This document shows, piece by piece, positions 11,910 to 42,300 of a stretch of DNA of 64,000 nt. The DNA lies in the NCBI GenBank assembly GCA_018389105.1, contig JACATO010000933.1, positions 62,001 through 126,000 on the forward strand, in the 5' to 3' direction. The notes beneath the pieces were generated by a model. The model saw nothing but the letters and a program-made list of their open reading frames with translations. It did no database searches and was not told where the DNA came from. Source of the stretch: Nautilus pompilius. Its lineage: Eukaryota > Mollusca > Cephalopoda > Nautilida > Nautilidae. The translations under genes and the position numbers were made by a program. Within the stretch, counting starts at the first letter, position 1, and each line of letters begins with the position of its first letter.

Positions 11910-11915
11910 TTTATT
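11910..11915 (-). terminator. Poly(A) signal of the integrin-like gene
   Basis: AATAAA on the minus strand, 139 bases after the TAG stop at 12055. A second AATAAA lies at 11841-11846. Position and orientation fit a 3' end for this transcript. Confidence 0.5.
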
Positions 11916-12054: not shown

Positions 12055-12092
12055 CTATGGTGATCTACGTCCAGTGAGACCAAAACCACATT
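12055..12092 (-). CDS. Integrin-like exon 20 (terminal, stop codon)
   Basis: Acceptor TTATTTTCAG, then 12 codons ECGFGLTGRRSP and TAG. It joins in phase after exon 19. In vertebrate integrin beta genes the matching exon starts at the same EC residues and runs straight into the transmembrane helix; here it ends instead. A weak alternative donor (GGAC|gtagat) exists, but no downstream exon was found. Confidence 0.65.
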
Positions 12093-24000: not shown

Positions 24001-27000
24001 GACAGAAATGTTCAATGACTGTAATAATTTTGTCATCCCCCCAGCAATAATACCTAAAACAGACTTCTTTCCAGCCACTCTAGCTTGTTGTCTTCACTGA
24101 TGTGCGCATGCATAGAGTCTATGATTAGCATGGATTTCTTTATCTGGAAAAATCCATCAGCCCAACACAAGTAGCACTTATCCAGCCATTTTTCATCATG
24201 TTGTTGTCCATCCATCCTTTCAGATTCACCTCCACCATAACTCCACTCACTAAATTCTTTGGCATAGTCTTAAATATTACCAAGGGGATAATTTCCTACC
24301 ACTGTAAAATTCGATTTTTCATGTCATGTTATGTTGTTCTGATGTTCATCTTTGCTTTTCCTTTGATATCTATGGTTTTATTCATAGGAATATCAAATGT
24401 TAACGGTACTTCATCCAGGTTGATGATGTTCAACATTTCAATATTATCTTCCTCTAACTTCGTTGTGTCAAGTTCTCGAAAATTATCTAACTTCTCTTCA
24501 AAATCTTCAGGCAGTTTCTGTGATGTGGTCATGCACTGCCTGATGCACAACTTCTTCTATGCATAAAGTGAAGCAGTCTGAGACATGCAGCACGTTGTGA
24601 TAATACATACTCTTCTAACCTGGACCCTTTGAGGTGTACACCTGTGACTTGCCTTCTTAGCTTATTTTGTTGTTGCAGATCATGCTTTACCTTGCACTAT
24701 TCTTGGACATTTTTCACCGATACCATACTTATGATGAGCAGCCATATTCCCTTCATTTTCCAAAGAAAATTTTAAGACTTCCAGTTTGAAGGCTATTGCA
24801 TAGGATTTACATGATGTAACAGGTGATAATTTTAAAATGAATAGGATTCTCAATTAAAATCAAAATGTCAGTGGCTTATTATCAAATGGATAATTAAGCA
24901 TGCTTTAATGAACAATGAACACTGATATTACTGAAATAAAAACTGATTTTTGCCAAGTAGTTTCATATGAACTTTCCAGCCAAGTTTTCAGGTATAAGTC
25001 AATTTGGATTATAAGACAAGGCCCAGATTTCCAGTAAAAAAGAGTCTAATCTTATAATGTAGAAATTACAGAACCTAATACCATCATGGTTATGCTAAAA
25101 GAATGTATCTTATAGAAAAGTAAGTCTATGTAACACATGAAATCTATCCAAGTAGAAACCACGCTACCACCTTGGTGCTGAGTCACTTCATTGTGACTAC
25201 TGTTCAATAAATTCAGTTTGTACCCATGTCGAAAAAGGTCAGGCAGTCGATTCACTAGCATTCGGAGACATTTAAAGTTTTCTGTCATGTTTTCTTCACA
25301 AGGACATCATCCTCCCAGAGCTCTTCTGAAGATTTCCACCAGGCTTTCTTGTCTGCCAGACAATTTACCACAAACAGACAAAACGATAATATGAGAATTA
25401 ATCAATCAGCATTTAATGGTCTGGCACTTCATCCACCTGAATTATGAGGCACATCAAAACAGGTGAACAAGCGCACTGGCTAGAAAAAGTGGACCGAACA
25501 ATACTACCTCCACAAAGCAATCCGCCGGACTTCGGACAGGACTGGTCGTCACACTCGCAGAACTTGCCAGAGTAGCGCCGCCTCCCGAGCTAAAACAGAG
25601 TTTCATAACTTCAGTGTGTTTTTTTTTGTTGTTTAAAGTGCCGCCCGCATTTTCCAAGATCTCATTTAACGTTTATAATTAGTCTACCGCCCACATCCTT
25701 AAATCAAACCGTACGTCACATTTATTAGAGCTGATATAACAATATATTGGACAAAAATAAAACAAAATTAGCTAGCAATTTTTTTTTTAAAAAATCGCCA
25801 TGAAGCTGATTTCACCGGTCGCAGCCACTGCTCACTTTATTAGTGAGGCAACTCTGAATGTTTTCCTAATCAAGAATGGACTTACTGCACTCACCAGAGA
25901 ACATTTGCTCTCTCTAGACTACATGTACTTCCTTATTTAAGATTATTACTAAAATTTGCAAGTTTGTTTTTTAATCTGATTATGCATATTTTTTTATCAT
26001 CACCCCACCAACCAAGTTCTATCATTATTTTGTTTAGCTTTTTTTTTTCATCAAAAAATTGTTTGAGTTCTGACCAGCTGAACAAACATCAGTCGGTCCA
26101 CAAGCAGTCAGTGAATGAATGACTTCCACTCCACAGAGATCTAACTTTTCTGAAACGACACACCCCCCTTCCCATCCCCTAGCAGAAAAATAGAAGGAAT
26201 TTTTAAAAACTGCAAAAACATTTTTTCTACAATACTGAGAGCAAAGCCCTCTGGTGCGTGCGCAAGAGGTTTTCAAACAAGAGTTCAGCTATGAGTCACA
26301 TGCCACCATTTGGTTTTGAAAACGCTTTCAAATATGGAGTCCAGCTTCATTAAACAATCAAACTTTATGTTCAAAACATTATACAGTTTTGCATTCCTTA
26401 AGTTCACTTGCCATTTTCTGTTTGTTGTTTTGTTAAATGTAATTCTTAATCTTCTCAGTATTCATACAAGTGCAGGAAGGCTGTGTCAATGTACACAGAA
26501 CCAGTCTACTTGAACACAAAGACAAACAAAATGAACTTACTTTATCCAAGGGGCATCTGCAATAACCGCAAATACATTTTCCAACACCGGAGCAAGGTAA
26601 CTGACCACGTCTGCAAATAATCAGTTCATAAAAGCTTTTCAACAGATTCTACAATTTCAAAAATTGCCAAAACAGGAAAAAGATTGCTATTGCACACTAT
26701 CGACAACTAGTCATGGTTATCTGAAAAATGTTCTGTTGCCACTAGACAGGGTCAATCAAGGAACTCACCCTGAGAGCTAAGCGAGACTCCTTCAGTCTCT
26801 CCCTTTTCCCAGATGGAGGGCAACAATATTCCAGTCTTGCTACCAAGCGCTGTGAATGTCTTACCCTTTCCCATGCAACTTTTATATTTTTCACTAACCC
26901 AAAGCACTTTAAAAGTTAGGTTGCATGATAAATTCCAAAGAAAGAGCATATCTTAGATTAAATCTTCAGCATAGTTTAAGTGGTACAGATGATTGGGAAT

Positions 27001-30000
27001 TGACTAGCTGTGAGCCAGACAGAGAGAACGTGGGTGCTATTAGATTTATTTTATCAACATGTCATCATTTTGCTAGCCCAAAGATATGGATTATCCTTCT
27101 TGCTTACCTTTCATACTCTTTCCACCTGGTGATAAAGGTCATGCAAAAAACATTTATATGCCATAAGCATCAAGATTAAATAGACAGTCTATACATAAAT
27201 TACATTCTGAAGAAGGTTGATGCTCATAATCATGGTCTGATGACAGTCAATGCTTAGGATTATCCACTACAATTAATCCAAACACAATTATCCACAAAAA
27301 CCATATTCTATTATCAGAAGGTATTAAATTTGGAGTGTCAGAATTCCATTTAAATGAATCTTCACACAGCTAAAACAACCACAACATTATTAGTAAAGCA
27401 CTACTTAAAACATTGTTGTAAGCACACACAGTACTGTACTACTCTTTATTTGAAGTTATATTATTCAAAAAATATCATACAAAATTAATCGGTCAAATAG
27501 AAATATAAATTGTAAAAGTAAAAAAAATCTAAAAATTAAAGATCTAAACTTAAAAATTTTAAAGTATATTTTCTCTTTGATGGACAACTCGAGTTTTGAT
27601 ACATTCTAATGTGAAGACTCTAAACAAGACTTTAATGTACACACATTTCAAGATATGTATGTTGCTCCCACAGCTAGAAAGGAGCAGCATTGTTATGTTA
27701 GATAGTCAGTCATGAGATTTCTCCCCACCCCAGAAGACAGCATCAGTAAACTGCAATAATTTAAACTAAACAACATTTACTTTTGAGTCCAGTGATCATT
27801 CACCGCTGTTCCTCTTTGTTAACAGACTATTTCCCACCTGCAACCCCCCCCTCCCGTCTGTTAAGAGAAAACACCATACAAAGTGTAATATCAAGAAAGG
27901 TTAAAAGGTTCAATATATCAGCTGAAAGATTTGGTTAAAAATGCCGAATACCTCAAATGTCCCTGGTAATTGGGCTACAATTGGAAAGCTTAGGAAAAAA
28001 ATGTAATTCAATCAAAATGAAGAAGCAGAGAAAGAGAGAGAGAGAGGATAAAAGTTTGGCACTAACGACATGGTGCACTGTCGTTCGGGGTTATCCATAT
28101 TGCAATCGCACTGACCGCACACCAGCTGGCCTACACCATGGCAATATGTATGATCCATTTTCTAGAAGAAGAAAAATATTTTTTTTTTTTAAATGTATTA
28201 ATTAAAGTTTTGTGCACTGCAGATGAATTAAAGATTCACAATAAAACTTTAGGAGAAAAAAAACAAACACCTGAATGTTTCTCTGAATATATTATTTGCC
28301 TGGTTGTATTAATCCAACAACTTTACGTGATATTCTCTTATACAGGAGTCATCAGAGCTGTCTGTGTCTCTGTCTCTCTCTCTGTGTCTGTCTCTGTCTC
28401 TGTGTCTCTGAGAGAGAGAGAGAGAGAGCAGCCCAGATGGATTCCTGCAGTATTACAAATACCTGATCACCTACCAACCAAGGCATCCTATAAAATGGTC
28501 ATGTCCTTGTCTTGAGGTAACCATCTTAAAAAAAAAAATGTTATTGCCCAGACCTTGGTACATGTATAGTAAAAAATCTCCAAATAGCATCAGAAAGACA
28601 GCCCTGGTGGTTTTTAGCCTACCATTCAAGATTGTAAACAGGTGAACACTGGAATCTAAGGCCCACTTTACATGGTATTAAATATGGTCATTGGTTCTTT
28701 AGAGTACTCATCAAAGAATAAGTAAAGAAAAATTTGTGGTTAGTGTTTGTTGCAAGTAAAATAATGTGCTGTACATAGTACACAATAAAAAATACTACTA
28801 CCAATGTATGCTAGTTCTGGAGATTCTTACTATTTAAGATTCCAAGGCTTCACCTTTTGTATGATATACTGGTATAATAGACAAAGAAATCCCTAAAAGG
28901 CCCCATCCCATTCTTCCAGACTTAGGCCTTTTTTCAAACAATCTTCCTGTGCCTACCAAGATGAAAACCTTAAAGATACAACTTTTTGAGGTTTAGCAAG
29001 TTATTTTTATACAATGATTTCAGACTTTTACCAAACAAACTGAGTACTATCTGAAACTAAAACTTACCTTTAAAGATTTCTTTGATTCACAATCACACCC
29101 ACATTTAGAATATACATTCAAATGCATTTGTGGTTTCTTCACACCTGGAACTTTGAACTTGATTCTGTAGCAAAATATTCAAAGGAAAAAAAAAAGTTAT
29201 ATTGTTTGTAGCTAAAATCCAATTTTTGATGTCATCTTTATGTAACTTTTGTCATATGTTAACTGGTTGAATACAGTAAGAAAAGAAAAACTGATAATTT
29301 GTGCCAGAAAAACTTGCATAATTAACAAAATTGCTACCCTCAGCTATTTTGAAAGCTCACAACGAATATAAAACCAAATACAATTAAAAATTAGGAATTC
29401 AAGAATCAAAGTACTTAATTTTGTTTTAAAGAAAAAACTGTGTACATAAAGAGAAACAATCCTGATACATTAAATATCAGACAAATTCAAAATAGAATAC
29501 ATTTTTTTAATCTAAAGGAGGTTAACCAAAATATACAAAGATGAGTTTTTCTATAGTTTGTGTTATACAGGATGTTTATTAAGTGTTTGAGGAGTTTCAG
29601 TGTTTAATAACTGCTGAACTACATAAGACAGAACCAAAAAAAGGTGCATCAGGAAGCCATAGGGTTAATGTTTTTGACTGATGCAGCAGAGAATTCTCAG
29701 ACTTCTACAAAGCTGCTATCTTCAGTGGTGCAGCATCCAATCCTATTTGTCAATACCTTGAACACATTCTCCAGCTGTTGGAGCTAAATTTTATTAATTG
29801 TTGAAAAGGATGAGTTCATGTGAAACAGTAAAGTGATTTTCATCACTTCTTTAAAATGCTTCTTCAACAGCACCTCTTCTACCACATAAGCCTGTTTCCT
29901 TAAACATTTTAAATCCAACTCTTAAAGAAGTTGTTTTAGATGATGGATTTTTGTTGTAATTTCCCCTAAACATTTGTTTCACTATTGTAGCCGACAAGAT

Positions 30001-33000
30001 GCAGTTAACCTTGTCAATTGGTCAATTGTCACCATTTTTTATTCACAGAAATCTGAACATCAAAAGAAAATGAAAAACTCTTAAGCACCTGACTTTGCTT
30101 GTAATCCAACTTAATTTTAGTTTAATAGTTATTAAACATTAAAACTTCTCAAAACGTTTATAAACTGAAATAACTCACCTTTTCTTCTTTGAGAAGCACT
30201 GATCAATTGAGATATTAAGTGTAAAGGTCACCTACAGAAAGAAGACAGCCTTGTCATGAACAATGCTAGAAATAATAACTGGAATAACTTTATCATAAAT
30301 ATTTGTGCTAATAATGCAGGTTTAATACATAAAACATAAAATTTTTTAAGCTACCAGTTTTTTTTTAATCTCACCCCCCCCAATTATAAACTTTCTATAG
30401 TTGCATTCAAGCAGCTTATTTAGGTTATTTCCAAGGTTTTAGGTGATACTTCCCAGCATATTTTTCTTTTAGAATTTTATTAGTGTATTGTTTTATTTCT
30501 GCCTTTTTAAACTTTTTTTTTTCTTTTTTAAATCGGAGCTGTGTTTCATGAAGTAGTTCTATGATTTTACCAGTTTTCCAATTTTCACACCATCACACAC
30601 TGTGATCTTCTTTGGCAATTTGAACCTAAAAAGTACACAATAAAAAATCCAACTAAATTATCTGTGATCTTAAAATAGAGCAACTCACATTCATAATATA
30701 TTTTAGTTTCACTTTAAAACGTTTAGGGTCTTAAGATATTTGGATAGATTAATAAGCTCTAAAAACAAGACTTGCCAAAAGTTCAAAAATTATGTAATTA
30801 AAAGTTCCCTTCTATACATCACATACAGAGACATTGGACAACTTAAAATAAATAAAATAGTAGTAGTAAAATTGTGAAAATAAGGAATTTGGCAGCAGTT
30901 AAACCTTTCTGCAGAAGAGATCATGTAGCAATGGAAAGCAGCCATTCAGATAACAGACCAACAGCAATTATACTCACCTGTGAGCGCAATCACTAAAAGC
31001 CTCAATTTTTATATGATTTCGTGCATTAAAAGAGATGGCTGCTCTCTGTAATATAAAATAAAAGCATTCACTGAAATGAAAGTTCAGCAAACAGCAGAGT
31101 AATGGCATACTGATAGGAACCAACTCATCAAATATCCTTCCAGACTAACGACACTTAAATGTGTACGAGAGGGTTAAGTTATTAACGTTGACACTAATGA
31201 GCAGTTCAGTTCAGGTATCTCTTTACACACAGACAGAAAAGTCAATTATTTTAAGCACAAAGAACCACACCAGAGAAATGGTATACTCAGAAAATTAAGA
31301 GCCACTAGAGATTAGCAGCAAAAGATTTGAGTTTCAGAAAAAACTTTTTTCTTTTTTTTTACAGTAAGAAACTAATAAAATTATTATAAATAATATAAAA
31401 CTCCAGTCGAGAAGGTTGCATTTTTCCTTATAGTAAATGCCATAAATATCAACAAATTTATCTATGGGAGAAAATCACTTTAGTTTACATTTTATGCATC
31501 ATTGTAGCTAATTATTGTAAAAAGTCATAAATTATTTACAATCTGTCAGAAGAAATTTCATAGGAATTGCAAAGTCTATTAAGAGAGAAGCTACAATTAG
31601 ATTTTCTCAGTTTCATTCCTTTCTACTATCTGATTTGCCGCTGGTTCTGCATCAGAACTGAGAAACCTTGGGTTTTATTTAAACAAAATTGCACGACAAT
31701 ATGGAGTATAGTGCATGCAAATAATATTTATAAAATCAGCTTTAGATGTCTTTCAAGACCAAGCAATACATTTCCACAATGCCATTCTAATGTTCTTTGT
31801 TACATTTTCACTACATTTCTGCAAAAGAGTATTTAATTTCACTGGATTAGGATTTCATTAAGTGTAACCAGAAACAAATGAAAATATGAAACAGTAGATT
31901 ATCATAGATCAGGGCTGGGAACGTATGACCCACGACTTTCACTTCATATAGCTTACACTTTCGAAATGGTCGGCATACAATATTTATACATCGCTACAAG
32001 CATCTTAGCAACACAACTCCAAGTAATAAGAATACTTTTAGCTTGGAGAAACTGTTTCCAATTTTATTATCAATCCCTTTTGTCATGTAAGTGCCGCGTG
32101 TTCGGCTCACTGTCACGTGTGTAGATAAGCCTTGCACTTGTAGACATCCCACACAATACAGCGATATAAAGTAGCAAGTGCAAGTAAAAGTAGTCAGCTA
32201 CAAGAGGCCACTTATTCCAAGAAAAAGTGAGTCAGGGATATTTCTTTGTTGAAGTTAATGGAAGTTTGCTGTTGTGGGGAGAAACTTTGGCAGGGTAATG
32301 AAGGCTAACCTAGAATGCCATCACACAACAATGGAAAATACGCAGATCAACAGGACAAACAGCCACATGTTGACAAAGAGGTGATTCCTTAAAGAAAAAT
32401 AATTACTCAGCAGTGTGTTTACCAAGTAGAAAAGAGAAGTAGGCAACATTTTGTGTGTTAACCGTGCAGTGAGTACACTGATAGCAAGAAAACTTAAAGC
32501 CGTATTCAGATACAAGTTTGTTAAGAAGTGTCTAGTACTAGTTGGAAGTATTTTGTGCACCAAGAGGAGGAGACTGTTTGGAAGTGTTAGTCTGTCCTGC
32601 AGGACTCTCTCTGATTGAATTCAGGATATGGTTACAAACATGGAAGGATCTCATTAAAAAAGCACACATTAAACTTTGGGGCCCTGTTCTCTCACCATAT
32701 ATGACAGTGCTGATGTCACCAATATAAGCCAATTAGCCATTTTTTGTTCATGGTATCACAACTAATTTTGAAATCAGGGGTAACTGACTGCACTGAAACC
32801 TATCCATGACAACTAAAAGATAGAACATGTTAACTGAAGTCAAGTAACAATGGAAGAACTTGCCCTAAAATTTGATAAATTTAGTATCACTGCTGATCAA
32901 GCCCCATCCCCAGCAAGATTGCAAAAGGAACTGGTGCTAACTCCACTCAGAAAAAAAGTAGAGATGCTCAATCTGGACACTTCTGATTTCATTGTGTGCC

Positions 33001-36000
33001 AATGCATGATTCATAAAAAGAATTTCACTACACAATCTGACTGACTCTAGAATGTGATGTCACTTGTGGCATCAACTGTAAATTTCAGCAAAGATTGAGG
33101 TCTATCTCAGCAGCACAGAACACTGAAATGATTTTTCAAACTCGAGAAAGCAGCAAAGTTGTTTATGGAGATGAAGGGGAAGCCTAAAAGAAAGTTCAGC
33201 GACTGCAAATGGTCAGCTTATGGCTGATATTACTCAACGTTTATCAGAGCTAAATATAAAGCTGCAAAGCTCTAAGCATTTGAAAACAAGCTCCATTTGT
33301 AGGAAAGTCATCTCTGAGAGGAGGGGACACCACATTTTCCAACACTTGCACAAACAAACCAACTGAAGACCATGCATGTGAGATGTCAGCTATGCTCAAA
33401 CAATTTACAAAAAAAAAAAAGGAAAAAATGTTCTGAAATTGTTTTTTCAATCCTTTCAATGTGGACATTGCCAGTGCTGCTGAACATCTGCAGCTAGAGC
33501 TGATTGAAATGAAAGCCAACAATGATCTGAAAATAAATATAACAGCTTACCATCATTGATGGAAGAACTACACACGGAAAGCAGTGAGTTCCTGAACTTG
33601 AGAAAGCATGCAATGACAAGTGTATCACTCTTTGGCAGCACTCACTCGTGCGCCCAATTCTTATCAAAAATGAAAATCGTGGGATACACCACCAGAACCG
33701 GGTTAACAAACGTGAATCTGAAAAACTGACTGTGATTTGTAAATGAAACTTGACATCAACTCTTTAGTGAGGAAAGCAAGCACATGCATTGCATTAGTGC
33801 ACGCAGTAGAGATGAGCCCCAATAATTCTCCACATTATTATCAAATAAAGCTAAGGCGTATTAATGTGCCCCCCTCAAATTTGAAGTCTTATTCAGTTCT
33901 TAGTAAGGAAAAGGTTCTCCACCCCTGCTGTAGGTAAAGTAATCCCAATGAATTTATTCACTACTGATAATAATAAAACAAACAAACATTTGTGTGCACC
34001 CACTGATTGTAATGTGATCAGCACATGCTGCCTTTTTTTTTCAGTAACTGATAACTTGCAAAGCAATTTCATTTAACTGAAAGTAGAACTGCTGCGACTG
34101 TCTGCTTCTGCTTCAGTCTGTGTAAAATGCACATTCAGTTTGTGAAGTTTAGTCCAGTCAATGAATAATACCACAGCCATTTTATTAAACTAAAGCTAAT
34201 GTTATAAAAATGTTTGAAACTTCATACATTTCCAATGATTCCATCTTCAAAACCTAGTAGCAACCAATAAAATTTCTAATCAACTTTGGTCATTATGCCA
34301 TATAATGATAATACTAATTTGGCAACCTGCTGTTATTATAATATGCTTGTTACTTTGTTGCAAAAAATAACAAAAAGACAAGCAGTAGTGTGAAATTCTT
34401 TATGTTAGTAATATCAAGGCATCTTTTAGCACAAAGACCATTTACATTGTTTGGCACTAAATCAACAGGATTTTGTAACATAGCTGAGTCTAGGTTACTT
34501 CATTGTGAAAGCTCTCTTTAATTCAAACATATTAGTGGGACACAGAAGTTACTCTCAGTTGATGATCCAGATATTCCCAAAGGTGCCTGACTGAATCCTT
34601 ATCAGTTATTCAGGGTATCCAGTGAAGATGTAGAATGCCTTAGTTCCACTTCCATAGCGATCACATGAGATATGACACGGCACCATCCTCCTGAATAATA
34701 TAGACATTGAATTCCAGCCTACCTTAATACAATGGTAGATCTATCTTTAAAATGACAATGTAACCAGCAAAATTAAAACTGAAATGTTCATCAACAAATA
34801 CCAATTCTGTTTCTACTGTGCCAAATTGCAGCCTATCTAACTCCTGAGTTAAAGGTCTCTGTGAGTGGCACAGTAGCTCACTAGTAGACTACTGGACTGC
34901 TAAGGTTAAGAGCCAACATTCAATTTCCACAAGAAACCAACTCATTTTGGCATACTATCTTCCTTGCATGATTTCTTCTTCTTCAAAAAGTTGCATGGAG
35001 TTTTCCCTGCCAAAGTCAGATTTTCCTGGTTCCATTTGGCAATGCTTCCTAGAGAACTACACTTCCTCACCAGGGTTGGTTCCCCTGCAGGTATCAATGT
35101 ACATTTAAAAAAAAAAAAGCCACTGGTCTTTTCCGAATCCAGTTTGAAATCCAGATGTGAACTGCCAAAAAATGGAAAGGAGAGTTGTCATCACCAGTAT
35201 CCTTTGATGTGTCTTTTTATTCATACAGAACAGGAATTGTTTCTCCCATGCTACATCATTTCTTCTGTAGCTAAGTCAGTAAAAATGGCACTGCGCCATT
35301 CTTTGGCTCATTTCTGTTGCATAGGCAATGTCAGCTGGTGGGTGGAGATATGGCCAGTAATAGCACATTCTTATTGTCATATCATTGCTGCAGTGACATT
35401 TTCCTCGTTGAACTTCATGATAATATTGGGCACAGATCCACAAGAAATTTCAAGATACTTAACAAGTTATTGGAGAAATACCATAGGGTCTGCCCTTTTT
35501 TCCAGTATGACGACTGTGCACACTGGTTATCTGCCCGTCTAACATCAAATAAATAAAGTCACAACTGAAATGAATAAATGAATGCATCTGACTGAAATGT
35601 AATGCAAATGGTGGTAATGCTTTGTAGTAAGAGATAAGTGAGCAGAGGAGCTGGTGGTAGAGTTATTTAGAAAATGTCTAGAATTAACATACTCCAGTTG
35701 ATCCACTGTTATTTGCAATGGGCAGTACACGAGCCTTTACTGAGAGGACAGACACTGTATCTGAAAAGACAGATTCACCCATTGATCATCAGTAGAGCAC
35801 ACCTTCCTCGGTATACCCAGCAAACAAAAACAATACCATACATGCTCTAAAATCAATGTAACAAACTATAACCAAGTTCTTTATTTTAAAATATTTTTAT
35901 TCCCATGGTTATTTTTAATTGATTTAAGTATAAAGTTAATGAAAGCAAGACTAAAAAATTTACAAATTTTCTTAAATTATAAATGTTTTTTGGTTTACAA

Positions 36001-39000
36001 TTAGAGATTTCCATATGAAACTAGAGCAATTCCTGCATCATACTATTTAATAGTTGTATCTTACCTCTGAAATATTACAGCAACTAAAAGCAATAACCCT
36101 CTAACCAATCATCAACAGAGGGTAAAATTAAAGGTGTTATTAAATACTTGAGAAGAAATGTCAGTCAGGAATTGTTATTAGAACTATTAATTCTAATATG
36201 GAATAAAAATAAATCATTTCTGTACATTTTCAAGGGAGAAATAAAAAGTAAAACTTTGGTAAATATTTTTAGTATTTTCATTATGTAGATAACAATAAAG
36301 GGAGGTAGCACAAAAAAATTTTCTTTTCATAGGATTTCACTAAACATTTCACGATCAAGTTAATATTACTCGACTGACTTCTGTTTCCGGGTCCATTCAG
36401 AATAGTTTGCTGCCCAAAATAATCAGCATCCCAAGACCACCCATGTGGTTTGGTATCCTGTGGATATGATGAAAAAGTTGATGCATGTTGGATTATGAAC
36501 TTGTGGAGCTGTCAGGTGTTCCCAAACTTAGTAGAGTTCTGGCCCAAACGCAATCATTCTGATTATTTGGTTTTCTGATAGAACACAAAAAGAACTTCTC
36601 AGAGAGCCAGATGTGATCAGTCATCCTCTGTCCAGTCTTTTGAGTTGTTCACAAAATCTAATACAATTTACTGAATTGTAGGGGACTTCTACCATTTTCC
36701 ATGGTTTGATATTTTCTCAATTCAAATGTCTCCAGACCAATGAAAGGTGAACTTTCTTTCTCTATGATTTGCCAATCAACCTTTGGCTTTCTGGCTGTTG
36801 ATTTCACAAAATCTTCCTGGACAGATTCCGTTGTTGCCATGGTCCAGTTGTCCTTCCAATGAGGCTGAAAATCTCTTTGTTGCAAGTCTTCTTTCTACCA
36901 CCGTTTCACAATTTTCCGAGAAGTGTCCGGTATCCATTTCACATCGACTGAGCTTTTAAGTAGAAACTCTTCAGACGTTGAGTTGGACTGCTATATTGCG
37001 AATCACCTGAGAAAACACCTGAAGCCACACCAAAAGCTGCAGAAGCAATGCACCATTGTAAAACAAACTGTTGACAGCGACTTTTTCTGAATTTACCCCA
37101 AATGATGTTGAAACAAGAATTAGAAACAGTGCACTGATGTTATGTGCAAGGTCAGATAAACTTAATAATTTCAGACTTTGGATTGCAGCATAGACAATGC
37201 AAAAGGCTACTAAAATGTCTGAGACCAGACCTAAACCTGAAATACTGAACAATCTCTTTGAAAAAGAACATTTTTTGTGCAATTCCCCTTAATGTCTGTC
37301 ATACTCATACACATGCAGTTCTACTTTTAACAGAAGTGTGTACATACTTGGAACAAGATGAAGAACCACTCGTTGGGGTTTCAGAAGTCTTTTCTTATTT
37401 ACAATTTTATCCTGTAATAAGTGAAACAAAAAAGTAAACAGCATTAAAACACCTAAAAGTTTCTCTGGGCTGCTTTTGTGACTGTTAGTAACAGTAAAAC
37501 AAAATTAAATATTTCTTAAACTAAGTTTTTTCATGTAGTAATTATATGATCCTTTCTCAAGTAGCTCACAATATCTTAGTTAAATATCTAATTAATTAAT
37601 CTGAATGAGGCTTACAGACAGAATAACTTATGTTTAGTTAAATTTATACAAAGAGAACAGAGAACCAATATTAATATCTTATATGGGGAAAAAGAAAAAA
37701 ACAAAAAAAAACTAGCAAACAACCAGCTAGGTATATAATTAGTGGTGGTAATTGATTTCAAATACCAAACCACCATCAGAAAAACAAAAAAGTTTCTAAT
37801 AGCTAGTTTGCAGCCAGATCAGATAATTTATAATTAAAACTTGCCAAGTATCTGCTAGGAAAGCTATGTTAGTAGATGATAAGCAAGCAAAGTAGCTGGT
37901 AGTAAAGCTACATATGTAGGTGATGAAGATGGTAGAAATAAATAGGTAAGTGACAAGAAAATGGAGTAGGTGGTGGTGAAGTGATGTTGTAAGTGATAAG
38001 TGAGCAGAGTAGCTGGTGGTAACTAGATACAGGAAAGAGAATCTGCAACCTAAACTACATATGCAAGCGACAAGGAAGCTAGTAGGTACCAAACTGCAAG
38101 CATAATTGATGGAGAACCTGATAAAGATATGTAAGTAATGTAAATAAATAACGAGAGACTACAGTAGTTGGTGGTAAAACTGCATGTAAAAGATAAGTGA
38201 ACAGATTAGTTAGTGATAAAGTCACGTATTAAGCAGTAAGTGAGCAGAGGAGCATATGGCAAAGTCACGTAGTAAGTGATAAGTGAGTAAGAGTAGCTAG
38301 TGGCAGTGTTATGTGACAAGTGTTAAGTGAACGAAGAAGCTGGTGATAAGTTTAGTCAGTATCAGGAGGCAGAGTAAAATATGGCAGAGATTTAATCATT
38401 TATTACATTTGTTTTTTATAAAAGCAATTCCAACTATTACCTAAAAAATCTTTGACAAAATTTATTTTAAAAAGTAAAATTTAATGACAAATTTTTAGTT
38501 AACTTTGATAAAGATAAAATGCAGTCTGTCTATTTTTCTTCTATTAAAAATACCTTGCTCACCATAATTTAATTATTTTTATATTGAGTATAGCAAAACT
38601 TAAAAAGATTATTTTTGTGTGGTAATATAAACCAATTTACTAAACAGAAAGTTTATTTTTCCAAACATCTTAAAAAATCTCCAGTTTATTTACCTTTCTC
38701 AGATGTGCACTGTTTGACGAATAATATATTGAATTCTGGGGGCAGCCTTCCCGCAGCAATGTTCTCTCACTTGCACATCTTGAATGTCCACTGAAATCCT
38801 GAAGAAGTTATATTAAATCAGCTAACAATATTGAGAAGGTTCATGTTTCTTGCAGTTGAATCCAATAGTAGATATAAAAGCAATACATTCAACTTAAGGA
38901 AGCATGGAGAGAAAAGAAACACAGTAGACAACAAAGAACATCAATTCCTGCCATCTAGGTTAATCAAAACAAAAATATAAGCCAGAAGTCAGTCACCTTT

Positions 39001-39307
39001 GCCAAACCTCGTACAGACTTAACATAACATTCTGTATTGAATGCAGAAACACTTTTAAAACAGTAAGAAAGGGGTTAATTAAACCAATTCTCAAACACAT
39101 CCCTTCCACACAGTTGGAAATGAGGTTGTATTTTAATTATTATTAATAGTTTGTGAACTTTCTGATCGTCATATTTTTAAGGATATACTGATCTAAAACT
39201 AGAAACAATCATGGTTTCACTCACAGGAAGCATACACCAAAAACAGCTGCCATTAGCCTGAATACAAGTTCCACAGGTCTTTTGCAAAGAACATACAGAA
39301 GCAGAGG
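12055..39307 (-). CDS. Secreted-type integrin beta-like protein, no beta-I domain (20 exons, start missing)
   Basis: Twenty exons joined by GT-AG introns in consistent phase encode ~538 residues of an integrin-beta-related protein. Domain order: PSI domain (~1-62, seven cysteines in family spacing, CGTCIQANGSCFWC); hybrid-domain strands (~63-158); I-EGF1 (~158-206); I-EGF2-4 (~207-320); a second I-EGF2-4 set (~321-448); beta-tail domain (~449-526); then ECGFGLTGRRSP and a stop. Normal integrin beta chains (~800 residues) have a ~240-residue beta-I domain inserted in the hybrid domain, four I-EGFs, one transmembrane helix and an NPxY tail. Here I found no beta-I exons, no transmembrane segment and no tail. 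Every exon is intact, which argues against a dead pseudogene. The signal-peptide exon was not identified; it must lie between 39308 and the PMS2 end at 45237. Likely a secreted or matrix protein (inference). Confidence 0.85.
13638..13751 (-). CDS. Integrin-like exon 19 (beta-tail)
   Basis: Reads DEPYMRFCQFIDDADDCIIQ and a following beta-strand segment. It matches the beta-tail pattern HCKEKDVDDCWFYF of integrin beta1, with both cysteines kept. Phase 1 in, phase 1 out. Confidence 0.85.
14649..14769 (-). CDS. Integrin-like exon 18 (end of EGF4b, start of beta-tail)
   Basis: Reads VCGGFCSANKECVLCRVF, matching the integrin motif TCLGVCAEHKECVQCRAF. Acceptor TTTTCCCACAG, donor GTATGT, phase 0 to 1. 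GC-richer than the surrounding introns. Confidence 0.93.
14890..15139. repeat. CRE-bearing (GA)n minisatellite, seven units
   Basis: Tandem array of (GA)n tracts separated by a conserved core TGTGACGTCAGTACA or GGTGACGTCAGTACA. The palindrome TGACGTCA (full cAMP-response element) starts at 14914, 14945, 14978, 15011, 15040, 15073 and 15112, at spacings of 29-39. It lies in the intron between exons 17 and 18, ~120 bases upstream of the exon 18 acceptor in gene sense, where it is a long TC-rich tract. Long open frames on both strands here are low-complexity artefacts. Confidence 0.95.
15863..15955 (-). CDS. Integrin-like exon 17 (I-EGF4, second copy)
   Basis: Reads KICNGFGSCVGGTCQCSS and then YYRGPTCEECP, matching QICNGRGICECGVCKC of integrin beta1. 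31 codons, phase 0 to 0. Paralogue of exon 12. Confidence 0.93.
16137..16246 (-). CDS. Integrin-like exon 16 (I-EGF3, second copy)
   Basis: Reads PEQGECQCGKCECREGVTGD and ends CRAVNG. 110 bases, phase 1 to 0, exactly the length and phase of exon 11. The donor is taken as GGT|gtatgt because the earlier GT would break the frame into exon 17. Confidence 0.92.
17138..17216 (-). CDS. Integrin-like exon 15 (I-EGF2 second half, second copy)
   Basis: Reads YTGVFCECDNFSCNRYRGKL, almost the integrin signature YSGKFCECDNFNC. Phase 0 to 1. Paralogue of exon 10. Confidence 0.93.
19395..19455 (-). CDS. Integrin-like exon 14 (I-EGF2 first half, second copy)
   Basis: Reads VVCSGRGLCVSGQCSCHQRQ, matching ICSNNGECVCGQCVCRKR. 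Phase 2 to 0. Paralogue of exon 9. Confidence 0.92.
20855..20895 (-). CDS. Integrin-like exon 13 (linker between EGF sets)
   Basis: Short exon TAFGAKERKFCIAP with good splice sites (TTTTTTAG, GTAAGT) and phases 0 to 2. It has the same phases as exon 8 and a single cysteine, so it may be a shortened copy of exon 8. Confidence 0.75.
21822..21899 (-). CDS. Integrin-like exon 12 (I-EGF4, first copy)
   Basis: Reads LLCSSHGICVNNRCVCEGGY and GGPLCE. 26 codons, phase 0 to 0. The upstream acceptor (TACTTTCAG) is used because it gives the in-frame LLC start. Confidence 0.92.
22337..22446 (-). CDS. Integrin-like exon 11 (I-EGF3, first copy)
   Basis: Reads EHGSCQCGRCRCKAEYIGKA and ends GCVSSSIA. 110 bases, phase 1 to 0, with an AAG acceptor. 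Matches [20 protein letters not shown] of integrin beta1. Confidence 0.92.
22560..23496 (+). mobile_element. Mariner element, broken transposase
   Basis: Decayed mariner in the intron between exons 10 and 11, opposite to the host gene. The N-terminal helix-turn-helix region reads ILLHEFKRSHEASGATHN and ADPRKTVREIAEELDKW (22730-22990). The middle is deleted. The C-terminal part reads LLHDNAHSHVAKVTLQKL and YSPDLSPTDYHLFKHL (~23165-23310), the mariner catalytic signature around the third aspartate. The right end is the reverse complement of TTAGGTTGTTACAAAAGTTT, followed by TA (23497-23498). The left terminal repeat is not recognisable, so the start is approximate. Confidence 0.85.
23576..25069 (-). 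mobile_element. Tigger/POGK-like transposon, copy B
   Basis: About 1.5 kb, bounded by related inverted ends: TACCATAATTTCCAAGTTAT at the left and the reverse complement of TGTAATTTCTACATTATAAG at the right. On the minus strand it reads, in order: AFKLEVLKFSLENEGNMAAH (~24800-24740), the pogo DNA-binding start; SQKLPEDFEEKLDNFRELD then INLDEVPLTFDIPMNKTID (~24520-24360), with the first catalytic aspartate; and IIAGGMTKLLQSLNIS (~24050-24000). In the last piece the usual LQPLD is LQSLN, so the final aspartate is lost. Several stops make it inactive. Confidence 0.85.
25508..25589 (-). CDS. Integrin-like exon 10 (I-EGF2 second half, first copy)
   Basis: Reads YSGKFCECDDQSCPKSGGLL, the integrin I-EGF2 signature. 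Phase 0 to 1, donor GGTAGT. CpG-rich relative to its introns. Confidence 0.94.
26541..26610 (-). CDS. Integrin-like exon 9 (I-EGF2 first half, first copy)
   Basis: Reads RGQLPCSGVGKCICGYCRCP then LDK. Phase 2 to 0, donor GTAAGT. Confidence 0.93.
28067..28161 (-). CDS. Integrin-like exon 8 (I-EGF1)
   Basis: Reads KMDHTYCHGVGQLVCGQCDC and then NMDNPERQCTM, matching KCHEGNGTFECGACRCNEG of beta1. Phase 0 to 2; the donor TC|gttagt is fixed by the phase of exon 9. Confidence 0.9.
28358..28428. repeat. Adjacent (TC)n and (GA)n tracts
   Basis: A run of CTGTCTCTGTGTCT-type pyrimidine-rich repeats passes straight into ten GA dinucleotides, forming an imperfect inverted repeat. Confidence 0.85.
29068..29164 (-). 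CDS. Integrin-like exon 7 (end of hybrid, start of I-EGF1)
   Basis: Reads IKFKVPGVKKPQMHLNVYSK then CGCDCESKK, matching [24 protein letters not shown]. Phase 2 to 0. Confidence 0.92.
29570..30080 (-). mobile_element. Possible decayed DNA transposon
   Basis: Intron block opening ACAGGATGTTTATTAAGTGT. Broken minus-strand frames read VGFKMFKETGLCGRRGAVEE and VFKVLTNRIGCCTTEDSS. These recall the helix-turn-helix and C-terminal parts of some mariner-like transposases of invertebrates. The signal is weak and the boundaries are guesses. Confidence 0.35.
30179..30231 (-). CDS. Integrin-like exon 6 (hybrid domain)
   Basis: Reads VTFTLNISIDQCFSKKK, matching VQFEISITSNKCPKK of integrin beta1. Phase 0 to 2. 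Confidence 0.9.
30571..30625 (-). CDS. Integrin-like exon 5 (hybrid domain)
   Basis: Reads FKLPKKITVCDGVKIGKL, matching ENGRKCSNISIGDEV. The cysteine would pair with that in exon 4. Phase 2 to 0. Confidence 0.88.
30978..31045 (-). CDS. Integrin-like exon 4 (hybrid domain after the beta-I position)
   Basis: Reads AISFNARNHIKIEAFSDCAH, matching GVTISYKSYCKNG just after the beta-I domain in integrins. With the first acceptor AG (start 31045) the incoming phase is 0. Using the next AG (start 31041) it is phase 1, which fits exon 3 directly. So exons 3 and 4 can be spliced together without any beta-I exon. Confidence 0.87.
31910..33927 (+). mobile_element. hAT transposon, decayed, with terminal repeats
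   Basis: A 2,018-base element in the intron between exons 3 and 4. The left end CAGGGCTGGGAACGTATGAC pairs with the reverse complement of the right end, CAGGGGTGGAGAACCTTTTC. The flanking 8-mers TCATAGAT (31902-31909) and CTGTAGGT (33928-33935) match at four positions and differ only by transitions at the other four, as in an aged 8-bp hAT target duplication. The plus strand encodes broken fragments of a GTF2IRD2/SCAND3-type hAT transposase, ending FLNLRKHAMTSVSLFGSTHS (~33590-33650) and SKMKIVGYTTRTGLTNVNLK. Multiple stops; not functional. Confidence 0.87.
34860..35118 (+). repeat. tRNA-derived SINE with A-tail
   Basis: The head GTGGCACAGTAGCTCACTAG, then TAGACTACTGGACTGCTAAGG, resembles a tRNA gene 5' half with a pol III A box. 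ACATTCAATTTCC sits where a decayed B box (GGTTCRANNCC) would be. An unrelated body follows, and the unit ends in a run of 12 A (35107-35118). A 192-codon frame at 34964-35542 runs through it and is not a gene. Confidence 0.65.
35119..37347. other. Intron 3 remainder, including a broken retrocopy-like block
   Basis: No integrin exon seen. At ~36650-37310 the minus strand has two long overlapping frames that look like one protein broken by a frameshift: an N-terminal hydrophobic part (SISGLGLVSDILVAFCIVYA, 36971-37282) and a polar part (KVDWQIIEKESSPFIGLETF, ~36680-36960). I do not recognise the parent. A single copy of the 41-bp minisatellite unit lies at 35633-35664. Confidence 0.4.
37348..37411 (-). 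CDS. Integrin-like exon 3 (hybrid domain before the beta-I position)
   Basis: Reads DKIVNKKRLLKPQRVVLHLV then P, matching EDITQIQPQQLVLRLRSG of integrin beta1. It ends in phase 1, where beta-I coding exons normally follow. Confidence 0.85.
37870..38345. repeat. Degenerate ~41-bp minisatellite
   Basis: Diverged tandem units in the intron between exons 2 and 3. Clear copies of GATAAGTGAGCAGAGTAGCT followed by GGTGGTAAAGTCACGTAGTAA-like sequence start at about 37878, 37995, 38191, 38236, 38278 and 38322. Some units are very degenerate. Shifted or isolated copies occur at 35633-35664 and ~15400-15418. Confidence 0.75.
38694..38798 (-). CDS. Integrin-like exon 2 (PSI second half)
   Basis: Reads DFSGHSRCASERTLLREGCP then QNSIYYSSNSAHLRK. 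The two cysteines match [20 protein letters not shown] of beta1. Exactly 35 codons, phase 0 to 0. Confidence 0.9.
39225..39307 (-). CDS. Integrin-like exon 1 found (PSI first half)
   Basis: Reads SASVCSLQKTCGTCIQANGS then CFWCMLP, matching [22 protein letters not shown]. Acceptor ATTTTACAG. The exon begins with two bases completing a codon, so at least one more exon (signal peptide and start codon) lies upstream. Confidence 0.92.
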
Positions 39308-42300
39308 CTGTAAAATAAATAAAATTGTGAACAAAGGTACAACACAAACTTACAGACTTGCATGGATTTTCCATCACACTAATAAATTCCGTTACACATT
39401 CTACACATAATTATAGTTATCCTGTCTAATTTGATTTCACCCATGAGTCAAGGATTCATAGGAGGCACCAAATCTGTTTAGCTATTGTTTGTGAGGAGGA
39501 TTTTCCTTAAAAATTAATTATTTGGGAAGAATGCCACAACACGTTTTTGTCCAAGGTTCAGTAAAATTGTTTAGACATTTTGGCAAGCTGAAAGTTGACT
39601 GTAATTTTTTTAATCAGCATCTTTCTGCAGTTAAGGGCTACTAAGATGTTCATGGCCTGATATTTGCATGACACATGTTTCCGTCATGTGTCTACTCCAC
39701 TAACCGAATACATTTTACAAATCCTGGATAGGAAAAATCAAGAGTCTGATAAACTTCTAACACTTTTTCTATCAAAGTTTTAGCTAAATAACTGAAAAAA
39801 AAAAAAAAAAAGCTTTTTCTTTTTTTTTATTCGAGTTTTATTTACTGGTCCTTAATTAAACTGGAAGCTATTCTTGGTGGTTTACTCGCACTCAGCAATA
39901 TATCAGTCCTGTTCAGGACAATTGGTAGGAAACTAAAAAGGGTTGTCACTCCGCGTCTGTCTGTCCGTCCATCCGAAGCTTGAGGGAAGATTGGTGGTAA
40001 CATCATAAAACTGCATTAAAGAACAAGCTAAGCTTTGCTATAGTGTATTTCAAATCCCCCCCTACCTTAATCCTACTAGGAATGGGCCTGGAATCTATAC
40101 TGACATACTTACTGATCATAAAAAAGCCAAAAAAAAACAGGCTGGTACAGAGGCAGCTGGAAATCATCTTTGTTCTGATACTGGAAAAACAACAGAGCAA
40201 TATTCAACTTATGCACGATTCTTAAAATGAATTCCCAGAGTACAGGGCAAGATCAGCAGAGGAAGCACAACACAATTTGCTGTTACCCAATTAGTGTATG
40301 ACCTACTACACTATATTGTACTTCCCCATTTAATTTTCCTTTTCCACACACCAGTTCAACATCAAAAGATTTTTAAAAAGTTAACACAAGATGCACAGTT
40401 CATTTTTAATGAGATTTCCAAAGCTTATTTTTATATTTAAAAAATTTAACAAAATAACATTTATGCAATGTGTTTGTTTTCGTCTTCAGCAAGACTGTTA
40501 CTGATTAGTCTTTTCATTTGGCTGCTGGAAATAACTAAACTAATTAATAAAGCTGAGCACTGAGGCAGCCAAGGGAAAGAGGTCATCCAAATCCAGCATT
40601 ATTAAGTCACCTAGGTAAGAGCTGATAGAGTTACACAAAACACAACTGAAGCACTATCAAGGGTGAACATTTCAGATAAACTATTAAAACAGCAAGCATC
40701 ACTAATGAAAGACCAATGCTTATAGCTATGTACAAAGACCTTCGTTTCTACCAAAAGCAGTCTTTTTCACAAATATCTTTAATGATGAGCTTAAACTGTA
40801 TGATCTACTAAGTTAAGTGTGTGGCAAATTTAAATTAAGATATCCTGTTTAACTCACTGATGTCCATATTTAATTAGCTCTTTGCACTGGCATTAAGTTT
40901 ATAAATAGATTCTTCACTGCATTCTGAAATCTATCTTCAATTCACTGTATTTTTAATAGGCATCTACTGATTGCTGACCTGCGCACAATGAGGCTATCAC
41001 CGAGTTTCTAAAACTACAGGGGTGTAGTCTTGTGGGACAAGAGGCTACCTTTGTTTCCAGTTGGTCTGTTGGTTTTAACAAGGCCCAGGTTTTTTCTAAG
41101 TCAGTCTGTTTAAGGTATCAGAACACTTGGCTAACTACAAATGAAAAAAGGGAGCAGTACATAAACAGATAAAACTAGTATCAAGAGACCAGAAAAAACA
41201 AAATTTGTTAAAATTCAGCTTGTCTTTCGTCCGCCAAACATTTTATACCATTTTGTAAGCAAATTAGAAGACGGTAAAGAAGTACCTAATTAAATAAGTA
41301 AATGATTTCAAAAATAACTGTTAGGTCCAAAGTGTCACAAGGTCCTTAGCTAAAAAATAAGCAGCGTTCTTAATAAGATATTAAGAGATCCTTTCCTGGC
41401 AGAGTTTACCAACCATTATAGCTGATGTAGAAAGCAAAAACACTTTTAAAAAAGACCCCGACTATCTATTTTCCACATGATGGTATCTGTTCAAGTGTAA
41501 AAGAAATGTGTGGCTGGCTGAAAATTAATTTTAGAATACAGATAAAAGGAACCACCCGCATTGAAGAGCAGCATCCATCTGCTCTGGTCACAGATTCAAA
41601 ATCACAAGTGATAATAATGGGAGTACAATGTTTCAGGAAAGAAAGTAGATTGGTAAATCTTCAAATGATGCTTATCTTCAGTGTTGCTGTTTTAAACATA
41701 GCCAGTTTATATAGTGCTTTCATGGCACCAGAACATCTCCAGGTCTCTGAACTAAGACTCCCAGAAGGTTAGCTATTATCCAAGTGGTGCCAAATGGTCA
41801 AGTTAGTACTGACATCTAATCGTTAAACTCTTGGTCATATCTGGCACCCCCCACTGTTTACCAATATCTGACAGTCTATCAATGTGATGTTCATGACAAT
41901 ATAAATATTAACTTGTTTCTCTTTATATTAGGTTAAAACCCAAAAACAAAAATCAGTCTAATAAATTTAGCCTTTTCTCATAAGAATTGCTGTTTAATAA
42001 TTCTTTGAAATAAAAAAATATAACATAGCTCCCAATTCCAGTCAGAATCACTAAATAAAATGACATTATTTCAGTTTAACACTTTAAAGTTAATTTTTGC
42101 ATTGTAAAATTGTTCAGCAACATTTTTACACTAGATCAATGTTTGTTGCCAGTTCCTTACAGATATCTTGACAACTATCAACAGGAAACTAGAGTTAATT
42201 AAAAACAGGACCTTATGCACTGTATTCAGCTTTGTTTATATGATATCCAATGGCTGACATGCTTTCCTACTGTAATCCCATCCCTTTGCTTAACCAGCTA

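What the first reader, a model, noticed from the sequence alone, without database searches (positions are those of the whole stretch)
31046..37347. Integrin beta-like gene with no recognisable beta-I (ligand-binding) domain
Exon 3 ends at the hybrid-domain strand just before the beta-I insertion point (LLKPQRVVLHLVP), and exon 4 resumes just after it (AISFNARNHIKIEAFSDC). The 6.3-kb intron between them contains a hAT element, a SINE and a broken retrocopy-like block. A manual scan of the minus strand for the MIDAS pattern (D-L-S-x-S-M in all codon forms) found no match. Exon 4 has a second acceptor AG (31041) whose phase fits exon 3 directly. Every flanking exon is intact. An integrin chain keeping PSI, hybrid, EGF and beta-tail but without the beta-I domain could not bind ligand or an alpha beta-propeller in the usual way.
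Basis: partly seen in the sequence, partly recalled or inferred. Interest (0 to 1): 0.85.

Follow-up and report, generated by a model that had tools for sequence, protein, structure and literature searches.

The report
Integrin beta relative missing its ligand-binding domain
An animal gene that looks like an integrin adhesion-receptor chain has lost the ligand-binding domain and probably the membrane anchor, yet the rest still reads as one gene, so it may make a free-floating integrin stalk that regulates or decoys normal integrins.

Summary
The finding holds. No beta-I sequence lies between the two hybrid-domain exons: best E 3.4 in the intron and 3.9 in the whole window, whereas leave-one-out profiles find 5-7 beta-I fragments at E < 1e-4 in each of four canonical integrin-beta genes of the same genome. 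All 16 PF00362 hits scored genome-wide belong to those four.

A 68-nt exon, 35760-35693, fits both phases and would complete the hybrid strand; it scores best of eight alternatives but is unproven (40 of 200 shuffles score as high).

Also found: a duplicated EGF block, and no convincing transmembrane or cytoplasmic exon. The 22-exon model is open for 582 codons and keeps 44 of 48 invariant cysteines.

Most likely a secreted PSI-hybrid-EGF-beta-tail "integrin stalk"; nearest precedents are ITGBL1 and zebrafish truncated beta-1 chains. A recently dead gene is the main rival. No transcript or orthologue was available, and the species is unidentified.

The parts
40113..40167 (-). exon 1, ATG and signal peptide (MISSCLCTSLFFFGFFMI), ends phase 1
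   Evidence: donor score 7.6; signal peptide judged by eye
39225..39307 (-). PSI domain, first part
   Evidence: PF17205 hit at G000:C889:101228-101296, E 0.0033; PSI_integrin 41.6 bits in the assembled protein
38694..38798 (-). PSI domain, second part
37348..37411 (-).
   Evidence: same phase in 4 of 4 paralogues
35693..35760 (-). candidate bridging exon X (68 nt, phase 1 to 0), NTVSVLSVKARVLPIANNSGSTG; would complete the hybrid strand and replace the beta-I domain with a short loop
   Evidence: splice score 16.7; best of 8 alternatives under a paralogue PSI-hybrid HMM, 79.7 bits against 66.0 for direct splicing, but 40 of 200 shuffles reach it; 19 of 49 windows hold a splice pair as good; the spliced alignments did not choose it as such
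31046..37347 (-). interval where the paralogues carry their beta-I exons; no beta-I sequence found here
30978..31045 (-).
   Evidence: acceptor 9.5 at 31045, -2.1 at 31041; for phase in paralogues
30571..30625 (-). HYB3, hybrid domain
30179..30231 (-). HYB4, hybrid domain
29068..29164 (-). HYB5, hybrid domain to start of EGF1
28067..28161 (-). EGF1
26541..26610 (-). EGF2 first half (EGF2 is split by an intron absent in the four paralogues)
25508..25589 (-). EGF2 second half
22337..22446 (-). EGF3
21822..21899 (-). EGF4, first copy
20855..20895 (-). short exon (41 nt, phase 0 to 2, TAFGAKERKFCIA), probable remnant of a duplicated EGF1; restores the frame
   Evidence: 8 of 110 control windows hold a comparable one, so moderate support
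19395..19464 (-). EGF2 first half, second copy
17138..17216 (-). EGF2 second half, second copy
16137..16246 (-). EGF3, second copy
15863..15955 (-). EGF4, second copy
14649..14769 (-). beta-tail domain, first exon
   Evidence: PF07965 six-frame hit at C889:76659-76757, E 0.2
13638..13751 (-). beta-tail domain, second exon, ends phase 1 as in the paralogues
12055..12092 (-). last exon found: ECGFGLTGRRSP then stop, where the paralogues start their transmembrane exon with xCP
   Evidence: acceptor 12.9; the only phase-1 exon starting xC with acceptor score 6 or more in 13630-500; AATAAA at 11915

Best explanation
A single-copy, long-diverged integrin beta paralogue that has lost the whole beta-I domain and apparently also the transmembrane segment and cytoplasmic tail, and has duplicated its EGF stalk. 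It probably makes a secreted protein: signal peptide, PSI, a hybrid domain closed over the excised beta-I domain by a short loop, eight full or partial EGF modules, and beta-tail. Shown: the absence of beta-I in this assembly, the exons and phases, the open frame of the model, the retained cysteines. Inferred: exon X, the short EGF exon, secretion, expression. Function (inference, from ITGBL1): without beta-I it cannot present a MIDAS or hold an alpha beta-propeller in the usual way; a free PSI-hybrid-stalk could bind integrins or matrix through its stalk and lower integrin activity.
For: No beta-I. 22 exons in consistent phase, 582 open codons, ATG to stop, in a model where X and the short EGF exon were chosen partly because they fit the phase. 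Pfam PSI_integrin 41.6 and EGF_integrin 72.7 bits, no PF00362 or PF08725 at E <= 0.1. 44 of 48 cysteines invariant in 5 canonical chains kept. Codon positions 1/2/3 of the internal duplicate agree at 0.55/0.58/0.39 over 112 codons, and the third position agrees at 0.51 in 45 identical-residue codons, as expected of long purifying selection. With no disabling change in the model, time since any death is bounded at about 0.01-0.02 neutral substitutions per site. The best PDB matches of the assembled PSI-hybrid part are beta-2 chains (2p26, 5e6v, 5e6w) that align in one continuous stretch (E 7.5e-11 to 1e-10), which implies chains solved without beta-I: a hybrid domain closed in this way can fold. 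No PF08725 hit on the contig at E <= 1. No second copy among 31 matches of the assembled protein in the genome.
Against: No transcript, protein or orthologue was seen. Exon X is not statistically secure: 19 of 49 windows contain an equally good splice pair (the 49 include the window's own two strands), 40 of 200 shuffles of X score as well, 38 of 464 control candidates scored as high in a first strand test and 21 of 721, true exons included, in a second. The spliced alignments did not pick X itself (one used part of it, 35739-35689). If X is wrong and 31041 is not used, the frame breaks, unless HYB1 is skipped (PSI second exon to HYB2 is in phase). Three hydrophobic phase-1 reading frames with weaker acceptors (3.2-4.0) at 13299, 12876 and 10961 leave some room for a transmembrane exon. 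Four invariant cysteines are lost and EGF1 is reduced. Identity to all relatives is only 31-36%, with the longest branch in the tree (5.54), as in relaxed constraint.
Confidence: 0.58

Rival explanations
1. A recently dead integrin beta gene: beta-I and membrane exons were deleted, and the remaining exons have not yet decayed.
For: The retained phases (1 then 0) do not match without an extra exon, as left by an exon deletion; exon X is not secure; four invariant cysteines lost; long branch.
Against: No stop or broken splice dinucleotide in the 22 exons of the model, which would limit death to about 0.01-0.02 substitutions per site, while no beta-I exon is recognisable. Two separate phase breaks are each bridged by an eligible exon.
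Confidence: 0.27
2. Assembly artefact: the beta-I exons exist in the animal but were dropped here.
For: The interval was not checked against reads; the genome is in 2558 contigs.
Against: No N in the window; all 16 beta-I hits scored belong to four other genes, so no orphan set was seen; no second copy of the gene; the missing membrane exons would need a second independent error.
Confidence: 0.07
3. Direct splicing of HYB1 to HYB2 at the 31041 acceptor, giving a beta-I-less chain without exon X.
For: The phase fits and the frame stays open.
Against: Acceptor GAG at 31041 scores -2.1, below all 74 acceptors used to build the matrix, with a 9.5 acceptor four bases upstream; its hybrid model score is the lowest of 8 alternatives, 66.0 against 79.7 bits.
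Confidence: 0.08

Closest known systems
ITGBL1 / TIED (vertebrate integrin beta-like 1)
   Same: Signal peptide, integrin-type EGF repeats, no ligand-binding domain, no transmembrane or cytoplasmic part; called a stand-alone integrin stalk in the title of a paper cited there (passages of PMC7563769). Secreted and inhibits integrin activity (abstract of PMC8921176).
   Different: ITGBL1 is ten EGF repeats alone; this gene keeps PSI, hybrid and beta-tail exons. Orthology was not tested.
Zebrafish truncated beta-1 paralogues (beta1tr-1 to -3)
   Same: Divergent integrin beta paralogues lacking transmembrane and cytoplasmic domains, transcribed, apparently from separate genes (abstract and passages of PMC1538996).
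   Different: They keep the beta-I (A) domain with MIDAS residues and stop after EGF-4; here beta-I is gone and beta-tail is kept. The same paper mentions sponge and human splice forms truncated inside the hybrid domain, again not this arrangement.
Canonical integrin beta chains (four in this genome, human beta-3)
   Same: PSI, hybrid, EGF and beta-tail exons with matching intron phases.
   Different: No beta-I, no transmembrane or cytoplasmic part found, duplicated EGF block with split EGF2.
Beta-2 fragments without beta-I (PDB 2p26, 5e6v, 5e6w)
   Same: PSI-hybrid-EGF chain in one continuous alignment with the assembled product.
   Different: Laboratory constructs, not a natural gene; that they were cut this way is inferred from the alignment and recalled, the papers were not read.

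Membership tests
Integrin beta subunit | PSI_integrin domain | tested here: met
   PF17205 41.6 bits, cut-off 27
Integrin beta subunit | beta-I (VWA) domain with MIDAS, PF00362 | tested here: not met
Integrin beta subunit | hybrid domain | tested here: inconclusive
   Both halves present with conserved phases; completeness depends on exon X
Integrin beta subunit | integrin EGF modules | tested here: met
   PF23105 72.7 bits, cut-off 27; seven recognisable plus one remnant, not four
Integrin beta subunit | beta-tail domain PF07965 | tested here: inconclusive
   Aligned by spliced alignment; Pfam six-frame E 0.2, below cut-off (the canonical genes also stay below cut-off exon by exon there); not listed at E <= 0.1 for the assembled protein
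Integrin beta subunit | transmembrane segment and cytoplasmic tail PF08725 | tested here: not met
   note that the paralogue C451 also escapes PF08725 but has a tail by spliced alignment, and three hydrophobic frames with weak acceptors remain
ITGBL1 / TIED | secreted integrin-type EGF stalk without transmembrane part | tested here: inconclusive
   secretion not shown
ITGBL1 / TIED | consists of ten EGF repeats only, no PSI or hybrid | tested here: not met
   ten-repeat definition from PMC7563769 passages
Decayed pseudogene | stops, frameshifts or lost splice sites | tested here: not met
   continuity depends on exon X and the 20895-20855 exon

The most novel reading that the evidence does not exclude
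A natural integrin beta chain from which evolution has cut out the ligand-binding domain at the domain border, leaving an uninterrupted hybrid domain, and which is secreted as an integrin stalk that acts as a regulator or decoy of the four membrane integrins: a stand-alone stalk like ITGBL1, but with PSI, hybrid and beta-tail kept.
Probability: 0.45. Interest if true: 0.72.

Novelty: new variant of a known kind. Interest (0 to 1): 0.55.

Why it matters
Integrin beta chains are defined by the beta-I domain. A long-kept gene without it would show that PSI, hybrid and stalk have a use of their own, and would give a natural test of whether the stalk alone can regulate integrins. It would also show an inserted domain being lost from its host domain, the reverse of the usual account. 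I found no report of a natural integrin beta keeping PSI and hybrid without beta-I in nine full-text searches of open-licence papers; those searches use exact words, three of them returned nothing at all, and of the listings I looked into passages or abstracts of five papers only.

Tried and rejected
Rejected: direct splice at 31041. Rejected: recognisable beta-I exons in the intron or elsewhere in the window. Rejected: displaced beta-I exons elsewhere in the assembly, as far as one search scored (its 16 hits all lie in the four gene models). Rejected: a second copy or haplotig (31 matches, all own exons or the four paralogues). The extra PSI hit on C1380 was read and looks plexin- or semaphorin-like by eye; the sub-cut-off C339 and C122 hits were not read. 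Led nowhere: hAT confirmation by Pfam; tRNA scan (none); species identification, because the mollusc haemocyanin family (PF14830) and COX1 (PF00115) searches did not complete, so the taxon is not known; a six-row tree with no supported fork. Tests that went against exon X. One search tested 7 of the 14 candidates plus direct splicing; the other 7 are variants of the same exons with other starts or donors. Scripts stopped with an error after printing the numbers cited from them. Paper searches returned nothing.
Full report
SETTING. The window is bases 62001-126000 of contig C889 in a 728-Mb assembly of 2558 contigs. The taxon was not identified. The gene lies on the minus strand from 40167 to 12055.

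WHAT WAS CHECKED FIRST. Genome-wide six-frame search with the beta-I family PF00362 gave 16 hits at E <= 0.001 among 25 scored candidates: 5 on C595, 5 on C2555, 4 on C556, 2 on C451, none on C889. I fetched these four genes and modelled them with a spliced protein-to-genome alignment of my own. All four are canonical integrin beta genes with PSI, hybrid, beta-I, EGF modules, beta-tail, transmembrane segment and cytoplasmic tail; a few of their small exons are low-confidence. In 4 of 4, the hybrid exon before beta-I ends in phase 1 and the exon after beta-I starts in phase 0.

THE ABSENCE IS REAL. A beta-I HMM built from the four paralogues and human beta-3 finds nothing in 342 intron fragments (best E 3.4) or in 3562 fragments of the whole window (best E 3.9). 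In the corresponding intervals of the four paralogues, profiles built without the target find 6, 7, 6 and 6 fragments at E < 1e-3 (C451, C2555, C556, C595), of which 5, 7, 6 and 6 are below 1e-4. Smith-Waterman agrees. There are no N in the window.

HOW THE TWO HALVES COULD BE JOINED. The gene keeps the ancestral phases: exon HYB1 ends in phase 1, HYB2 has a strong phase-0 acceptor at 31045 (score 9.5). A bridging exon of phase 1 to 0 is therefore expected. Among 14 candidates in the intron, 35760-35693 encodes NTVSVLSVKARVLPIANNSGSTG and has the second-best splice score. It would take the place and phase of the first paralogue beta-I exon, whose first residues form the last hybrid strand before beta-I (structural statement recalled from integrin beta-3). 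Under a PSI-hybrid HMM of the canonical chains, the model with this exon scores 79.7 bits, the next of the eight alternatives tested 74.1, direct splicing 66.0. Against this: 40 of 200 shuffles of the exon reach its score; 19 of 49 windows of the same length contain a splice pair as strong, the 49 including both strands of this window; 38 of 464 control candidates matched the strand profile as well in a first test, and 21 of 721, true exons included, in a second; and the spliced alignments did not choose it, though one used part of it. I hold exon X as more likely than not, not as shown.

THE REST OF THE GENE. With exon X the model has 22 exons, consistent phases and 582 open codons. The EGF block is EGF1-2-3-4, a 41-nt exon that looks like the end of a second EGF1, then EGF2-3-4 again; EGF2 is split by an intron in both copies and in none of the four paralogues. 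The short exon restores the frame and places a cysteine nine residues before the next, as in the four paralogues and human beta-3, but 8 of 110 control windows contain a comparable exon. Other exon combinations in phase, such as EGF3 joined straight to the second EGF4, cannot be excluded. The last exon found reads ECGFGLTGRRSP and stops; its cysteine sits where the paralogues start their transmembrane exon (xCP). No other phase-1 exon starting xC with acceptor score 6 or more was found down to base 500; three hydrophobic phase-1 frames with acceptors of 3.2-4.0 were listed and look unconvincing. No PF08725 hit at E <= 1 lies on the contig. Pfam on the assembled protein gives PSI_integrin and EGF_integrin above cut-off and neither beta-I, beta-tail nor cytoplasmic tail at E <= 0.1; the beta-tail exons rest on the spliced alignment and a weak six-frame hit.

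ALIVE OR DEAD. For life: open frame and intact splice dinucleotides throughout the model; 44 of 48 invariant cysteines kept; in the internal duplicate the third codon position has diverged most. If the gene were dead, the absence of disabling changes limits the time to about 0.01-0.02 substitutions per site, by a calculation that assumes the model is right. Against: low identity (31-36%), longest branch, loss of four cysteines, dependence on two small inferred exons. A search with the assembled protein gave 31 matches, all its own exons or the four paralogues, so I see one copy.

MECHANISM. Inferred. Without beta-I there is no MIDAS and no beta-propeller interface, so conventional pairing with an alpha chain and ligand binding are not expected. 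Without a membrane anchor the product should be secreted. ITGBL1, a secreted integrin stalk, inhibits integrin activity (abstract of PMC8921176), though one study cited in PMC7563769 found no direct ITGBL1-integrin interaction (passages). The most likely role is of that kind: a soluble stalk that engages integrins or matrix and lowers adhesion. The PSI-hybrid part aligns in one stretch (9-192) to beta-2 chains 2p26, 5e6v and 5e6w, while chains that include beta-I match in parts, for example 5e6r chain B at 9-92 and, with the whole product, 92-246 at chain positions 306-460; so a hybrid domain closed without beta-I appears able to fold.

COMPARISON. Zebrafish has transcribed beta-1 paralogues without membrane and cytoplasmic parts, but with beta-I (PMC1538996). 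ITGBL1 lacks beta-I, but consists of EGF repeats only (PMC7563769). Passages on the Ciona and Acropora integrins describe beta chains with a conserved MIDAS (PMC1145181, PMC2397394). This gene combines both losses while keeping PSI, hybrid and beta-tail. It fails two defining features of an integrin beta subunit (beta-I, transmembrane/cytoplasmic), so it is filed as a derived relative, not as a subunit. Nine literature searches found no such natural protein; the library is limited to open-licence papers.

Noticed in passing
window 22705-23100, + strand: Mariner-type transposase fragment (HTH_48, E 1.1e-11) inside the EGF2-EGF3 intron.
   Followed up: partly
window 26610-15863: Tandem duplication of the EGF2-3-4 block with an extra intron inside EGF2 in both copies, absent from the four paralogues.
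   Followed up: yes
G000:C451, model at reverse-complement coordinates 13424-28670 (L046-L050): A divergent canonical paralogue with DLTGSM at the MIDAS position and a cytoplasmic tail too diverged for Pfam PF08725 at E <= 1.
   Followed up: no
window about 15140-14890: Tandem array of a TCTCTC...TGTACTGACGTCAC unit in the intron before the first beta-tail exon; it holds repeated TGACGTCA (CRE-like, recalled) palindromes.
   Followed up: no
window about 38360-37880 and 35660-35590: By eye, a similar imperfect repeat (accaccagctactctgctcacttatc-like) lies between the second PSI exon and HYB1 and again directly after the donor of exon X; possibly involved in the rearrangement that removed beta-I.
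   Followed up: no
L051 about 1975-2040 (G000:C1380): PSI domain exon that looks plexin- or semaphorin-like by eye.
   Followed up: partly
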